This document shows, piece by piece, positions 9,748 to 16,168 of a stretch of 39,028 nt of DNA. The stretch is taken from NCBI GenBank assembly GCA_025928345.1, contig JAICJR010000007.1, forward strand, positions 1 through 39,028, given 5' to 3'. The number at the start of each line of letters is the position of its first letter. The first letter of the stretch is position 1. Below the pieces are notes generated by a model. That model ran no database searches. It worked only from the letters and a program-made list of their open reading frames with translations, and had not been told where the DNA came from. A program made the position numbers and the translations under genes. This DNA is from Thermoleophilaceae bacterium. Its GTDB lineage: Bacteria; Actinomycetota; Thermoleophilia; Solirubrobacterales; Thermoleophilaceae.

Positions 9748-10290
9748 TCACTGTCTCAGGTAGACACGCGCGACGGCCGCCGAGAGGACCTTCTTCCTCG
9801 CCGTTGTGGCACCTGGCCACTTGAGGATCACTGTGATCAGCCGGCGCTTGTTGGCGGTGAGCAGCTGCCCCTCCCCCGGAAACCAGTCGGCGTCCAGGCC
9901 CAGGCCCGCCACGCGCTGTGGTGGCGGCTCCTTTCGCACGGTGCTGAACTGCTGGGCGTCCTCCTCCACGGCGCGCTCCAGCCGGGTGAACGGCTGCGGC
10001 GAGCTGTCGATGTTGGCGATCACCGTCAGGTGCCCGGCGCGGTAGGTGCACTGGGGCTGGGCGTTGTTCCCCGTGGACTGCCGTTGCGAAGAGACGGAGG
10101 CGTGAGAGGCGCGAACCACGACCGCGCGTGCCTGCGGGAGGCATACCGATGGCGGACGGTGCGCGGTGGTGCGAGCCTGGGTGTGACCGCCGCCGCCTCC
10201 GCCGCCGCAGCCGGCAAGCAGCAACGCCGCGCACACGGAGGGACACAGCCCGCGCGAAAACCGAGGAGTCCGTGGGACGCAGGGCCGCAC
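9748..10290 (-). CDS. Putative lipoprotein
   Basis: A protein of up to 180 residues with a lipobox-like LLLAGC followed by a Gly run (CGGGGGGG), so it is expected to be lipid-anchored outside the membrane. The rest has no recognised domain. The start is uncertain: the first conventional codon is GTG at 10290, which falls inside hairpin element E2, and the frame is the same as the upstream NlpC/P60 gene, separated from it only by the TAG at 10348-10350 plus 19 codons. The N-terminus before the lipobox is Pro/Arg-rich. Confidence 0.6.
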   Translation of the reverse strand: MRPCVPRTPRFSRGLCPSVCAALLLAGCGGGGGGGHTQARTTAHRPPSVCLPQARAVVVRASHASVSSQRQSTGNNAQPQCTYRAGHLTVIANIDSSPQPFTRLERAVEEDAQQFSTVRKEPPPQRVAGLGLDADWFPGEGQLLTANKRRLITVILKWPGATTARKKVLSAAVARVYLRQ

Positions 10291-10321
10291 GCGTACGACA
10301 GTACGCGAAGTGCCCGAGGAC
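10275..10321 (-). repeat. Hairpin element E2 (GTCCTCGGG-N28-CCCTGCGTCC)
   Basis: On the minus strand GTCCTCGGG (10321-10313) and CCCTGCGTCC (10284-10275) flank exactly 28 bases that contain a perfect 7-bp stem, CGCGTAC-TGTC-GTACGCG. The same flanks at the same spacing occur in element E1 (16063-16109) on the other strand, around a different stem. It lies between the NlpC/P60 gene and the lipoprotein gene and covers the annotated lipoprotein start. Confidence 0.7.
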
Positions 10322-10347
10322 CCCGGAGTCCGAAGGTTTGCAGCCGG

Positions 10348-10941
10348 CTAGAGGCCGAGCGGATGCCGCGCGTGGTAACCGCGGGTGGGACGCGGTCCGC
10401 CCCAGCGCGGGCCGCTGCCGGGGGCGGCGCCGTGCGCCTTGGCCATGCGGTCGCGCCAGCCGGTGTCGAAGCGGAGCCCGGCGATCATCATGAACGCGTG
10501 CGCCGGGTTCGTGTAGACGGTGATCCACTGGCCCTTGCCCGCCTCGCCCCAGTGCATGAAGTCGCTCGAGTCGAGCGGCGTGTCGAGCAGACCGGCGCCG
10601 TGGAGCGCGAAGCTCACAGAGCCAGAGCAGTCATAGCCCTTCGAGATGAACGACCTGTGGCCGCCGCCGAAGATGTACGGCTTGGTGACGATCTCGTTCG
10701 CGGCATTGATCGCGTCGACCACCTGCTGCGGCGCCCCGAGCGGCGGAATGGCGATGCCGCCCACGATCTTCGCCTTCGGCGTGGGCTGGAACTGCGGATC
10801 GCTCGGCGATACGCCACCGGTGGTATTTGGTGCAGGAGCCGGCGTCGTTGAGGTTTGCCCGAACGCAGCGGTGGGCAGCAACGCGCAGCAGGCCAAGACC
10901 ATTACTGCGAGCAAAAGCGGTTTGTCAGCGCGCTTCGGCAA
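10348..10941 (-). CDS. Secreted NlpC/P60-type cell-wall peptidase
   Basis: A 197-residue protein: signal peptide (MPKRADK then a hydrophobic core ending AAFG), a Thr/Pro linker, and an NlpC/P60-like domain with Cys105 in GYDCSGSVS and His148 in NPAHAFMMI as catalytic dyad. Such enzymes cut peptidoglycan stem peptides. The C-terminus is Gly/Pro/Arg-rich. Start is TTG at 10941, chosen because it supplies the positively charged signal-peptide start and is preceded by GAAAGAGATC; an internal ATG at 10902 would remove most of it. The gene lies directly behind a c-di-AMP riboswitch, a known arrangement for cell-wall hydrolases in actinobacteria. Confidence 0.85.
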   Translation of the reverse strand: MPKRADKPLLLAVMVLACCALLPTAAFGQTSTTPAPAPNTTGGVSPSDPQFQPTPKAKIVGGIAIPPLGAPQQVVDAINAANEIVTKPYIFGGGHRSFISKGYDCSGSVSFALHGAGLLDTPLDSSDFMHWGEAGKGQWITVYTNPAHAFMMIAGLRFDTGWRDRMAKAHGAAPGSGPRWGGPRPTRGYHARHPLGL

Positions 10942-10954
10942 GATCTCTTTCGTA

Positions 10955-11080
10955 CGCCTGCCGGGTTAGCTGACGGGCTCGCGCTGAAAGAGCTTGCGCG
11001 CCTCTACTTCCCCCCTGGAAGAGAGGTTCGCCCCAAAACTTGGTTCCCCGGTCCCGCTCACGCGGGTTCGGCGTGGCGGG
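10955..11080 (-). ncRNA. ydaO/yuaA-type cyclic di-AMP riboswitch
   Basis: Read on the minus strand, the region upstream of the NlpC/P60 start carries the conserved blocks of the ydaO aptamer in order: GCCGAACCCGC, GCGGGACCGGGGAACCA, TTGGGGCGAACC, and GAGCCCGTCAGCTAACCCGG followed by CAGGCG. The terminal CGCC (about 11079) and GGCG (about 10955) can close P1. A variable arm lies between the third and fourth blocks. The family binds c-di-AMP and usually turns expression off; it controls cell-wall hydrolase and ion-transport genes. The start codon follows 13 bases after the aptamer, so the expression platform is short and may act on ribosome binding. Confidence 0.93.
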
Positions 11081-11154
11081 CACTCTACAACATCGTCACG
11101 CGGAATGCCTTCGGCAGTTCTGGGCGCTTTCCTGCCGCCTACGATTCGGCGCTG

Positions 11155-12762: not shown

Positions 12763-15700
12763 TCACACGGTCTCGCCGGCGAGGATGAGGCGCTGCAGCG
12801 CCGCCGTCTCCTCGGCAGGCTCGACGCCCAGCCCGTCCACCAGCGCGCGCCGGCACGCGAGAAACTGCCGCAGAGCATGTCCGCGCCTGCCGGAGCGCGC
12901 ATACAGGAGCATGAGGCGCCGCTGCGCTGCCTCGTCGAGCGGGTCCACCTCCACGGCGCGGAGGCTCGCGTCGATCGCGCGCGGGTTGTCGCCCGCGGCG
13001 GCGTGCTCGTCGGCAAGCGCGCCGAGCACCTGGCCGTAGAGGTCGAGCAGGCGCTCGCGCCACGCGATCGCCCAGTCCTCGTAGCGGTCCTCCGGAAGCG
13101 GCTCGCCGCCCCAGCGCGCGGCCGCCACCTCGAGCAGCGGGACGCGGTCGGGCCGGCGGGCCGAGAGCGCAGCGCGCGCGGCGCGCTCGAACTCGTCGGC
13201 GTCCACCGAGTCGCCGGGGCGCAGGCGCAGCCTGTACGAGCGCTCCGACACCTCGATCGTGGTCTGTTCCGCGCCCGGCGGGTCGAGCACCGCCCTCGCG
13301 CTCGACACCGCCACCTGGAGGCCGCGGCGCGCGGCGTCGGCGGGCTTGTCGGGCCAGAACGCCTCGAACAGCACGTCCTCCGGCACGGGGGCGTCGCGCC
13401 TCACAAGCAGGAGGCGGACGAGACGCTGCGCCACGCGCCTCTCCCATGCCTCGTCGTCGACGGTGAACGCGCCGCGCCGCAGGCCGAACCCGCCGAGCAG
13501 CGTGAACACGAGCGCCGGCGGCTCGCTCGCCAGCCGCCGGCCGGACGCGCGAGCCGCCGCGGCCACGGCGGCGTCCTTGACGCGCTCCAGCTCGCCCACC
13601 GCGCGCGGCGCCTCCGGGTGGCCGGACGCCACGGCTGCCACCAGCGCGGCGCGGCGCACCTCGGCCATCGGATGACGAGTGAAGGCCAGCAGCGGCGCGC
13701 CACCCGGCATCGCGCCCTCGATCGCGGCCACCACCTCGTCCGGCGGCAGCACGCCCTGCTCGAGCGCGGTCCAAAGGAGCGGCTCGAGCCAGCGCCACTC
13801 GCGGCGGACGAGGTTCTGGGGCTCCGTGCCGGCGTCATGCCAGGCGCATCCCAAGTCCTCGAGCGCCCCGGGATCGTCCCCCTCGTTGCGGCGCAGCCAC
13901 GCCCGCTGCGCGAACAGGCGCGGCGAGCGGCACTCGCGCGGACGGCCGCGAAGCGCGTCGTCGAGCAGTTCGCGCGCCCACGACGGCTGCCCCGCCTCCA
14001 CCAGCACGGGCACGAGGATCGCCGTGGAGCGCGCGCGACCGAGCCATGTGTCGAGCGCGCCGTGCTCGATCGCCGAAGCCGCGGCGTCCGACGCCGCGTC
14101 GTGATCGCCGCGGCGGGCCGCCAGCGCCGCGCGCGCGACGTGGGTCTCGGCCGCCCAATTGCGCACCAGCGGCCGCACGCGGCCCAGCTCGAGCTCGGCA
14201 TCCGCCACATGGCCAAGGCGCGCGTGCAATCCGGCCTTGAAGGTGTGCGCGAGCCCGCTCACGTAGCTGCCCATCCAGGTGCGCTCGGTGAGCCGCTCGA
14301 GGCGGTCGGCCATCTCCATAGCGGAGTCGTCCTCGCCGCGCTCGTCGTGGATCAGCGCGCCGTAGCCGAGGAAGAGAGGAAGGCGGTTCGCCGGGTCGGT
14401 GCGCTCGAGCGCCGCCACGACCTCGCGCAGGCCGGCCAGGGCGCCGTCGAGCTTGGCCTGCGGGAAGTCGAGGAACGTCCCGCGGAAGCCGCCGGCAAGC
14501 GGCGCGAGCACGGCGGCGCGCGAATGGGTCATCGCGCGGTCGAACAGCTCGGCCGCCTCCGCGAAGCGCGACGCCCGCGCATGCGCACACGCCACCGACA
14601 CCGCGGTCATCGGCGCGGCGTGGGCCTCTGCGCCGTCGAACCCCGCGGAAAGCGCTGCCGCGGCGTCGTAGTCCTCGAGCATCAGCAGAACGTCCGAGAG
14701 GAGCAGCCGCATCCGCCACTCGTGCGCCGTGTCGCCGCGCGCCGCATAGCCCGCAATCGCCTCGTTGAGAGCCGGCACCGCGTGCTCGAGGTCGCCCTCC
14801 CCCGCTGCCAGGCGCCCCTCGATTGTCCGCAGCTCAGGCGCATCGCGCAGCTCGTCCGGCAGGGCGTCGAGCCACGACGCGACGGTTGCGGGCGCGCTCC
14901 GGAACAGCACGTGCCCCTCGCGCGCGACCGCATCGGCCGCGCGGACCTCGTCCCCTGCAGCAAGCCAGTGCTCCACCGCCTCGGCGCCCCGCCCTGAACG
15001 CTCGAGCGCCGCCGCAAGCGCGCCGTGCAGCTCTCGCACCCGCTCCGGTGGCCGCTCGTGCGCGAGGCGCTCGCGCAGCAGGTCGCGGACGAGCGGGTGG
15101 TAAGCCATGCGCGCGCCCGAGTCGACGCTGCGGAGCGGCACGCCGCGGCGGCCGGCTACGTCGAGCAGCGTTGCGGGAAGGCCGAGCCCGGTGAGCATCT
15201 CCTCGTCGAGGTCCGGGGCGAGACTCGATTCGAGGAGTGCGATGCGGAGCTCCTCGCCGAGCGGCGCGAGCAGCTCCTCCTCGAGGAAGGCGCCGAGGGC
15301 GGCGGAGCCACCCGGATCGGGCACGAGCGCGCCGCCCGAAGCCGCGGACAGGGCGACGCCGAGCGGCCAGCCCTCGGTGGCCGACCAGAGCGCATCGAGC
15401 TCCGGCTCGCTCGGCTCGTGACCGCTGGCCGCCTGGAACAGCTCGGCGCACTCTTCGGGGCTGAAAGCGAGGTCGGCCGAACCGAACTGCTGCAGGCGCC
15501 CGCTCGCGCGGAGCTTCGACAGCCGCAGCGGCAGGATCACGCGTGAGGCCACGGCCACGCGGAGCGCAGGAGTGCCGGTGCCAAGCAAATCGCGCACCAC
15601 CGCGCCGGCCTCGGGCGAGTCGGCGAGCTGCTCGGAGTCGTCGATCACGATCGTGAGCGGGTCCACCAGCAACCGCTCGAGCTCCTGGGCGAGCTCCCGC

Positions 15701-15993
15701 GAGGCCAGCGCCGGGTCCACCTGCAGCGGTGCGGTGGCGAGCCGCTCGCCGAGCACATCGGCCGCCCCGGGGGCCGCACTCGCCAGCGCGCGGACAAGGT
15801 CGGTGAGCAGCCGTCCGGGATCGCGGTCGAGCTCCGTGCAACGCACCCACGCCACCGCGCCGCCGCGCAGCTCGAGCGCGTCCTCCAGCGCCATCGTCTT
15901 TCCAAAGCCGGCGCCCGCCACGAGCAGCACGTGACCGTCATCGAGGACACGGGCCAGACGAGCCGCCACAGCGGGGCGAGGAATGCGATCCAT
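12763..15993 (-). CDS. Large transcriptional regulator: STAND ATPase, TPR region, winged helix and BTAD
   Basis: A 1076-residue regulator. The N-terminus is a MalT-like STAND ATPase with Walker A GAGFGKT (27-33) and Walker B LTIVIDDSEQL. A long helical, TPR-like central region follows. The C-terminal quarter holds an OmpR-type winged helix (FTLLGGFGLRRGAF ... VPEDVLFEAFWPDKPADAARRGLQVAVSSARAVL) followed by a BTAD domain (DEFERAARAAL ... DPLDEAAQRRLMLLYARSGRRGHALRQF). In classical SARP/AfsR proteins the winged helix and BTAD are N-terminal, so the order here is reversed. ATG 15993 is preferred; an in-frame GTG at 16020 would add nine residues and lies in a palindromic element. The signal sensed is unknown. 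Confidence 0.87.
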   Translation of the reverse strand: MDRIPRPAVAARLARVLDDGHVLLVAGAGFGKTMALEDALELRGGAVAWVRCTELDRDPGRLLTDLVRALASAAPGAADVLGERLATAPLQVDPALASRELAQELERLLVDPLTIVIDDSEQLADSPEAGAVVRDLLGTGTPALRVAVASRVILPLRLSKLRASGRLQQFGSADLAFSPEECAELFQAASGHEPSEPELDALWSATEGWPLGVALSAASGGALVPDPGGSAALGAFLEEELLAPLGEELRIALLESSLAPDLDEEMLTGLGLPATLLDVAGRRGVPLRSVDSGARMAYHPLVRDLLRERLAHERPPERVRELHGALAAALERSGRGAEAVEHWLAAGDEVRAADAVAREGHVLFRSAPATVASWLDALPDELRDAPELRTIEGRLAAGEGDLEHAVPALNEAIAGYAARGDTAHEWRMRLLLSDVLLMLEDYDAAAALSAGFDGAEAHAAPMTAVSVACAHARASRFAEAAELFDRAMTHSRAAVLAPLAGGFRGTFLDFPQAKLDGALAGLREVVAALERTDPANRLPLFLGYGALIHDERGEDDSAMEMADRLERLTERTWMGSYVSGLAHTFKAGLHARLGHVADAELELGRVRPLVRNWAAETHVARAALAARRGDHDAASDAAASAIEHGALDTWLGRARSTAILVPVLVEAGQPSWARELLDDALRGRPRECRSPRLFAQRAWLRRNEGDDPGALEDLGCAWHDAGTEPQNLVRREWRWLEPLLWTALEQGVLPPDEVVAAIEGAMPGGAPLLAFTRHPMAEVRRAALVAAVASGHPEAPRAVGELERVKDAAVAAAARASGRRLASEPPALVFTLLGGFGLRRGAFTVDDEAWERRVAQRLVRLLLVRRDAPVPEDVLFEAFWPDKPADAARRGLQVAVSSARAVLDPPGAEQTTIEVSERSYRLRLRPGDSVDADEFERAARAALSARRPDRVPLLEVAAARWGGEPLPEDRYEDWAIAWRERLLDLYGQVLGALADEHAAAGDNPRAIDASLRAVEVDPLDEAAQRRLMLLYARSGRRGHALRQFLACRRALVDGLGVEPAEETAALQRLILAGETV

Positions 15994-16000
15994 GGGCTTT

Positions 16001-16165
16001 TTAGATGACTGACTCCACACTCACGCACGGCCGGATGACGCGCCACATCTGCGCTGGGCTGCGTCCTCGGGTCTCGGCTTGCAACAAGCAAGCACTCCAC
16101 CCTGCGTCCTTGCCCAGCTTGATCTGGACGCGCCCCCGGTCATACGCGACTGTGGAGTCAGCCAT
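16001..16165 (-). CDS. Possible 54-aa small ORF inside palindromic element E1
   Basis: An ATG-to-TAA frame (starts [19 protein letters not shown], ends VSVESVI) running through the whole palindrome just upstream of the BTAD regulator. The start and stop lie at the two arms of the inverted repeat. It is too short to judge by codon use, no ribosome-binding site is evident, and the palindromic structure by itself may explain the open frame. Recorded because it would otherwise be missed. Confidence 0.2.
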
Positions 16166-16168
16166 CTA
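16002..16168. repeat. 167-bp imperfect palindrome (element E1 with 21-bp terminal inverted repeats)
   Basis: The two ends, 16002-16022 and 16148-16168, are inverted repeats of 21 bp with two differences (TAGATG-R-CTGACTCCACA-S-TC). Inside are a perfect 7-bp arm GCTGGGC/GCCCAGC, a symmetric internal loop presenting TGCGTCCT on both sides, GGGT/ACCC, and an apical GCTTGC-AACAA-GCAAGC. Most differences in the outer arms become G-U pairs in a minus-strand RNA. The core 16063-16109 matches element E2. The ends begin and finish with TA. It occupies nearly all the space between the BTAD regulator and the DUF255 gene. Confidence 0.75.

What the first reader, a model, noticed from the sequence alone, without database searches (positions are those of the whole stretch)
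16002..16168. 167-bp palindrome with wobble-paired arms and a two-fold symmetric internal loop
The arms agree over 21 bp with two differences; further in, several differences turn into G-U pairs in the minus-strand RNA but into A-C mismatches in the plus-strand RNA, suggesting selection on a minus-strand transcript. Inside, GCTGGGC/GCCCAGC encloses a symmetric loop with the same octamer (AGGACGCA on the minus strand) on both sides, then GGGT/ACCC and an apical hairpin. The element is the leader region of the STAND/BTAD regulator. Alternative: a small MITE, since the ends are TA-bounded inverted repeats.
Basis: partly seen in the sequence, partly recalled or inferred. Interest (0 to 1): 0.72.

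Follow-up and report, generated by a model that had tools for sequence, protein, structure and literature searches.

The report
Mobile hairpin element before BTAD gene
The palindrome is one copy of a family of small mobile DNA elements in Thermoleophilia bacteria, whose one strand folds into a strongly conserved hairpin; this copy sits just upstream of a regulator gene and is missing from the same place in the nearest relative available.

Summary
The palindrome is real: the minus strand of 16002-16168 folds at -113.6 kcal/mol (z -11.5), the plus strand at -85.9 (z -7.5). It is not a private leader RNA. A covariance model from five own-genome copies finds 10 copies here (one more in the window, 10247-10349), matches 26 of 31 genomes with the own one counted, up to 45 per genome, and 66 of 149 of the class. 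On 76 distinct copies 94.3% of modelled cells pair and 20 of 21 pairs show double changes. The core holds four small loops around a two-fold G-GA-C/G-GA-C centre whose closing pair covaries. No Rfam family reaches its threshold on it. Congener G001 has the same BTAD-YyaL spacer without the element; rejoining the flanks through one TA fits. Copies abut gene and tRNA 3' ends in one orientation: all 7 tRNAs found near copies are antisense on the 3' side. No mobilising enzyme was found; what the fold does is inferred.

The parts
16002..16168 (-). whole element: 163 bp between two TA dinucleotides, long imperfect palindrome; conserved strand taken as minus
   Evidence: absent from the same spacer of congener G001
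16002..16003 (.). TA, putative target duplication (BTAD side)
   Evidence: flanks joined through one TA fit G001, which itself has GG there
16167..16168 (.). TA, putative target duplication (YyaL side)
16154..16168 (-). terminal repeat TAGATGGCTGACTCC (5' end of the minus strand)
   Evidence: pattern TAGATGRYTGAYTCC, up to 1 mismatch: 131 hits in 27 of 31 genomes against 3 for the reversed pattern
16002..16016 (+). terminal repeat TAGATGACTGACTCC (inverted partner)
16035..16136 (-). conserved structured core matched by covariance model R1 (98.9 bits; the focal copy is one of the five training copies)
16103..16110 (-). 5' strand of the symmetric loop, AGGACGCA
   Evidence: G-GA-C module
16060..16067 (-). 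3' strand of the symmetric loop, AGGACGCA
16112..16118 (-). 7-bp helix, 5' strand GCTGGGC
   Evidence: covarying helix 3
16053..16059 (-). 7-bp helix, 3' strand GCCCAGC
   Evidence: covarying helix 3
10247..10349 (+). second copy of the family in the window (59.1 bits), at the stop codon of an antisense ORF (10348-10764, minus)
12763..15993 (-). BTAD/AAA regulator gene; likely ATG at 15993, 8 bp from the element (CAT kept in G001)
   Evidence: Pfam PF03704
16213..18156 (+). YyaL-type gene (Thioredox_DsbH, PF03190), divergent neighbour used for synteny

Best explanation
It is a non-autonomous mobile element (MITE-like, 163 bp plus a TA on each side) of a large family dispersed through Thermoleophilia. 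Shown: many dispersed copies, shared kinds of ends, empty sites in congeners, a focal site that fits a TA duplication, a covarying hairpin with a strand bias, and a preference for the 3' ends of genes and tRNAs in one orientation. Inferred: an enzyme supplied in trans acts on the TA-bounded ends, and the family persists through copies whose one strand still folds. The central tandem-GA module is two-fold only when folded, because its two halves are direct repeats in the duplex; it is most likely a docking site for a dimeric protein that acts on the folded RNA or single-stranded DNA. At the focal site the hairpin lies 8 nt before the BTAD start codon and probably affects that gene as a side effect.
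For: Own-genome copies; 26 of 31 genomes and 66 of 149 class genomes. Covariation on 76 distinct copies: 295 doubly changed cells against 79.3 in shuffles, 0 of 500 shuffles reach it, and sliding the partners destroys it (shuffles do not allow for relatedness). The MAFFT-only five-copy alignment shows it too. Loop pair 37-125 is C-G in 60, A-U in 13, G-C in 1 and unpaired in 2 of 76; the tandem G-A positions hold in 72 and 76 of 76. Focal site empty in G001. Of 8 other own copies, 3 sites are empty in G001 and a fourth lacks the element; of 11 copies of G002, 2 sites are empty in G017. Near-identical dispersed copies in G013 with the same kind of ends. Terminal-repeat pairs 166-170 bp apart in 13 of 27 pairs. 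G-U exceeds A-C 84 to 29 and 38 to 10. Gene ends; tRNA ends.
Against: No enzyme identified: PF13358 in 4 of 31 genomes and not in the own one; PF01797 in 2 of 31. Short-armed copies do not all show TA at the ends, and L011's junction fits no TA duplication. The one-sided orientation at gene and tRNA ends is not expected of a simple TA-targeting palindrome. The by-element sign test for outer arms is 25 to 13 (p 0.07), and one cruder count shows no bias. G001 has GG where the target TA would be. No transcript data.
Confidence: 0.7

Rival explanations
1. A resident structured RNA that each copy provides to its neighbouring gene, for instance as an insulator or terminator at gene ends; dispersal is old and copies are kept because they work.
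For: Strong covariation in dispersed copies. In 25 of 79 copies the antisense gene on the 3' side ends 4-15 nt outside the core, against 2 of 79 for the sense gene on the 5' side. All 7 tRNAs found in 77 sources lie antisense on the 3' side, 6 within 7 nt. The thiolase 3' end carries a copy in both G000 and G003.
Against: Empty sites in congeners. Placement is mixed: of 62 copies with a called gene on both sides and none overlapping, 19 lie between convergent, 12 between divergent and 31 between tandem genes. At the thiolase site 17 of 19 printed sites lack it, one of them cut short by a contig end (by eye).
Confidence: 0.17
2. A riboswitch or conserved leader RNA of the BTAD regulator.
For: Position 8 bp before the start codon, same strand as the gene.
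Against: G001 keeps the gene start without the element; other copies show no consistent upstream placement; no Rfam match at gathering threshold here.
Confidence: 0.03
3. A plain decaying MITE derived from an IS630-type transposon; the hairpin reflects only its long inverted repeats and the fold has no role.
For: TA ends, long terminal inverted repeats, inner-deleted forms. TA is 8.6 per kb in coding bodies and 28.5 elsewhere, so TA targeting alone would favour TA-bearing stops. Two IS630-type elements in G011 and G010 have TA-bounded repeats beginning TAGTGACC and TAGTGGGCC, a little like the TAGTGG ends of some copies.
Against: Conserved loops with compensatory change inside them and the strand bias are not expected of passive inverted repeats. 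Many of the abutting stops are TGA, not TA-bearing. The orientation at tRNA and gene ends is one-sided. The IS ends match only over the first bases.
Confidence: 0.15

Closest known systems
RUP of Streptococcus pneumoniae
   Same: 107 bp, TA targets, terminal inverted repeats, dispersed and intergenic (PMC2229807, passages read)
   Different: RUP is linked to IS630-Spn1; no partner was found here. This family has covarying internal loops and lives in about 70% GC genomes.
ERIC/RU-1 and Correia/NEMIS
   Same: Small repeats with 5'-TA-3' at the termini whose transcripts form long stem-loops; NEMIS RNA is proposed to be a target of RNase III (PMC2229807, passages read)
   Different: Not compared letter by letter. 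Here a two-fold tandem-GA module is conserved across many genomes of a class, and two interiors occur in the same arms.
YPAL/RU-2 of Yersinia (about 168 bp)
   Same: Nearly the same length, not A+T-rich, palindromic (PMC2229807, passages read)
   Different: YPAL lacks TA at its ends and its repeats are internal (same source).
REP/BIME with RAYT (Y1) transposases
   Same: Extragenic hairpins, often at gene 3' ends (recalled)
   Different: Y1 transposase in only 2 of 31 genomes, not in the own one.
Rfam RF01729 Termite-flg
   Same: Sub-threshold match to one copy (30.8 bits, threshold 40)
   Different: The aligned fold differs from the element's own; taken as chance.

Membership tests
MITE (bacterial) | Short, no transposase gene, repeated at dispersed sites | tested here: met
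   167 bp incl. both TA; 10 matches in the genome, near-identical copies in G013
MITE (bacterial) | Terminal inverted repeats | tested here: met
   TAGATGRYTGAYTCC pairs; short-armed copies have weaker and varied ends
MITE (bacterial) | Target-site duplication shown against an empty site | tested here: inconclusive
   L009: CTA on both sides, one CTA in G001. Focal copy: TA on both sides fits, but G001 has GG there. L011: no TA duplication
MITE (bacterial) | Autonomous partner with the same ends | tested here: not met
   No DDE_3 match in the own genome, 4 of 31 genomes; ends of two of them share only the first bases. Other transposase families were not tested
IS630-derived MITE | TA target | tested here: inconclusive
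   fits at the focal site and L009, not at L011
IS630-derived MITE | Ends homologous to a resident IS630 | tested here: not met
REP/RAYT | Y1 transposase in carrier genomes | tested here: not met
   2 of 31 genomes
Cis-regulatory RNA / riboswitch | Conserved placement upstream of one class of genes | tested here: not met
   empty congener leader
Any Rfam 15 family | Score above gathering threshold | tested here: not met
   window; five loci, permissive
Structured nucleic acid in general | Covariation beyond shuffles and slides | tested here: met
Structured RNA in general | Transcript exists | not testable with these tools
   no expression data

The most novel reading that the evidence does not exclude
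A family of mobile elements, spread through a bacterial class, that moves or persists through a folded single strand: a dimeric protein recognises the two-fold G-GA-C tandem-GA module in RNA or single-stranded DNA, and the element is placed in one orientation at the 3' ends of genes and tRNAs, with arms free to change and even to match the end of the neighbouring gene.
Probability: 0.28. Interest if true: 0.87.

Novelty: new variant of a known kind. Interest (0 to 1): 0.62.

Why it matters
Bacterial MITEs are mostly treated as leftovers of transposons (recalled). Here a small mobile element keeps a covarying, strand-biased fold with a two-fold symmetric core in many genomes of a class, at up to 45 copies per genome, and Rfam 15 does not list it. 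Whether a fold itself is what such an element is selected for becomes directly testable, and the one-sided placement at gene and tRNA ends asks for a targeting mechanism. It also warns that a leader-like hairpin beside a regulator gene can be a recent insertion.

Tried and rejected
Riboswitch or private leader: rejected, empty leader in G001. Known RNA family: none at threshold; Termite-flg match judged chance. IS630 and Y1 as mobiliser: neither tracks the element. Ten transposase loci scanned for the element's terminal repeat gave nothing with fewer than four mismatches. Insertion into existing terminator hairpins: at six empty sites the sequence is no more hairpin-prone than its surroundings (percentiles 0.14 to 0.81); only L011's site in G001 shows a clear hairpin. 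One search aligned G001 in the wrong orientation and was dropped; one search replaces it. One search's arm extension was too lenient; one search replaces it. One search had a wrong search expression; one search replaces it. One search (whole-hairpin local alignment) gave G-U 93, A-C 90, probably because conserved loops were counted; its eight-element set used the strand picked for stability, so its 38 to 4 is biased. The C139 match (22 bp, E 0.16) was dropped as chance. Viral contigs: one match, not followed. Literature: five searches; judged by titles and abstract starts, no listed paper describes this family; only open-licence PMC papers are held. After the one check of this report I added; the one-sided tRNA result moved the novel case from 0.20 to 0.28, the best explanation from 0.75 to 0.70, the plain-MITE rival from 0.20 to 0.15 and the resident-RNA rival from 0.15 to 0.17.

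Full report
OBSERVATION. The palindrome at 16002-16168 is as described. The minus strand folds at -113.6 kcal/mol against a shuffled mean of -65.2 (z -11.45), the plus strand at -85.9 (z -7.45). The window is 69.8% GC; at gathering thresholds Rfam finds only a c-di-AMP riboswitch elsewhere in it.

THE FAMILY. BLASTN in the own genome found four partial relatives besides the focal copy. In the stretches cut around all five, the strand with AGGACGCA is the more stable one. A covariance model (R1) from these five finds 10 matches in the own genome at E up to 1, nine of them below 1e-6 (five are the training copies), one being a second copy in this window at 10247-10349. It matches 26 of 31 genomes at E up to 0.1, own genome included, with up to 45 copies; 66 of 149 genomes of the class at E up to 0.001; and 13 of 246 of the phylum, six in the own class and seven in one other family.

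THE FOLD. The 79 matches come from 77 sources, mostly the best-scoring copies. On the 76 distinct ones 94.3% of cells pair, 20 of 21 pairs have changes on both sides, and 295 cells are doubly changed against 79.3 in shuffles; sliding partners by one to three columns drops pairing to 29-39%. This alignment was fitted to the model, and shuffles do not allow for relatedness, but the MAFFT-only five-copy alignment gives the same picture. The loops are the most conserved part. In detail there are four 2-by-3 loops: loop 1 is GA/GCA in 63 of 76; loop 2 is mostly RA/GMA (GA/GAA 30, GA/GAC 17); loop 3 is mostly AA/GCN (GCC 27, GCA 22); loop 4 is GCA/GA in 69. Between loops 3 and 4 lies 5'-G-GA-C-3'/5'-G-GA-C-3'. 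Its G-A and A-G positions hold in 72 and 76 of 76; its closing pair is C-G in 60, A-U in 13, G-C in 1 and unpaired in 2. Loops 3 and 4 lie symmetrically about it. The two halves are direct repeats in duplex DNA, so the symmetry exists only in a folded strand. Sheared G-A pairing is my inference.

STRAND. G-U exceeds A-C on the element strand, 84 to 29 in outer arms (70 copies, alignment blind to wobble) and 38 to 10 in model pairs. By element the outer arms give 25 to 13 (p 0.07), the model pairs 25 to 5 (p 0.0003; that alignment may favour G-U). A cruder whole-hairpin count gave 93 to 90. So one strand seems favoured; RNA and single-stranded DNA cannot be told apart here.

MOBILITY. The YyaL-type gene beside the element has a 92% identical orthologue in congener G001, with the same BTAD neighbour and the same spacer but without the element. 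Flanks joined through one TA align with G001 across the junction apart from one nucleotide and substitutions; G001 has GG at the TA itself. In 15 further relatives printed I recognised no BTAD neighbour by eye, and two of those prints fell inside the gene, so they are uninformative. For eight other own-genome copies, G001 shows three empty sites (L009, L011, L014), one site without the element but with unrelated sequence (L013), and four sites with only one flank found. For eleven copies of G002 against G017, two are empty (L026, L374), one is unclear (L375) and eight are uninformative. L009 has CTA on both sides where G001 has one, in what reads by eye as a native TAG stop (my gene caller did not call that gene); L011 shows no TA duplication.

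CLASSES. Long-armed copies like the focal one end in TAGATGRYTGAYTCC: with up to one mismatch 131 hits in 27 of 31 genomes against 3 for the reversed pattern. Read off that list, 27 inverted pairs lie within 400 bp: 13 at 166-170 bp, 12 at 35-143 bp, and two at 179 and 381 bp. Several short forms (L145-L147, L152, L156) read as inner deletions of longer ones. A second interior (type B, no symmetric loop) sits in similar arms in L149-L151, L157 and L162 and in L158 of G020, where R1 found no core. Near-identical copies in G013 (L056-L059, L063) share the focal kind of ends, though two of them lack TA at the left end.

PLACEMENT. The antisense gene on the 3' side ends 4-15 nt outside the core in 25 of 79 copies, the sense gene on the 5' side in 2 of 79 (simple gene caller). 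tRNA scans of the same 77 sources found tRNAs in seven (L017, L023, L035, L038, L041, L079, L086): all seven lie on the 3' side and antisense to the element, six with the tRNA 3' end within 7 nt of the core model and L079 at 74 nt. L373, outside that set, is alike. TA is 8.6 per kb in coding bodies and 28.5 elsewhere, so TA targeting would favour TA-bearing stops, but many of these stops are TGA and TA targeting does not explain the orientation. The focal copy, between divergent gene starts, is not of this kind.

UNEXPLAINED. In L013, L072, L022 and L026 the arm pairs on into the neighbour's coding end, and at the thiolase site the arm differs between G000 and G003 in step with the gene. Arms average 18.9 nt against 8.5 when arms of different copies are crossed (95th percentile 27), so L026 stands out alone while single arms of about 20 nt do not. 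Template switching at the hairpin or target-templated insertion are possible. Insertion into existing hairpins was tested at six empty sites and not supported.

MOBILISER. DDE_3 is in 4 of 31 genomes, not the own one; Y1 in 2 of 31. Two IS630-type elements have TA-bounded ends starting TAGTG, like some copies (L014, L034, L062) but only over the first bases.

COMPARISON. The review PMC2229807 (passages read) lists TA ends and stem-loop transcripts for Correia/NEMIS, ERIC and RUP; PMC10969869 (passages) calls MITEs typically AT-rich; PMC3049150 was seen as abstract and outline. Five text searches listed no paper that by title or abstract start describes this family. It behaves like a MITE; the partner transposase is missing, the target duplication is clear at one site only, and the conserved two-fold fold and one-sided placement set it apart.

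Noticed in passing
window 10940-11083 (-): c-di-AMP riboswitch (RF00379, 78 bits) upstream of a 138-aa minus-strand ORF without Pfam match; the second element copy follows that ORF's stop codon.
   Followed up: partly
window 10247-10349 (+): Second copy of the element family in the same window, with changed loops (GTGGGACGCAGGG / CCCGAGGACCCC).
   Followed up: partly
L017, L023, L035, L038, L041, L086, L373: Copies abut tRNA 3' ends (Lys, His, Arg, Lys, Lys, Val, Ile), each antisense and on the 3' side; some arms pair into the tRNA end (by eye).
   Followed up: partly
L149-L151, L157, L162, L158: A second interior type (GCGCCGCACGC...GGGTGGCGA) in similar terminal arms: the interior seems exchangeable.
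   Followed up: partly
L193 and L215 (thiolase 3' ends): Element directly after the TAG stop in two genera; the opposite arm is an inverted copy of each genome's own coding end, with AGA/AGG codons in the gene.
   Followed up: partly
L064 (1510-1915) and L055 (1501-1719): Clusters of copies in one orientation, about 100-200 bp apart.
   Followed up: no
L236 (909-2069), L238 (1345-2541): IS630-type elements with TA-bounded inverted repeats TAGTGACCTGAGTCG and TAGTGGGCCTTCTCG.
   Followed up: partly
L316 (6816-6879): One core-pattern match in Cephaloticoccus, chance or transfer.
   Followed up: no
L397 (601-651, -): One core-pattern match in an IMG/VR contig, possibly host DNA.
   Followed up: no
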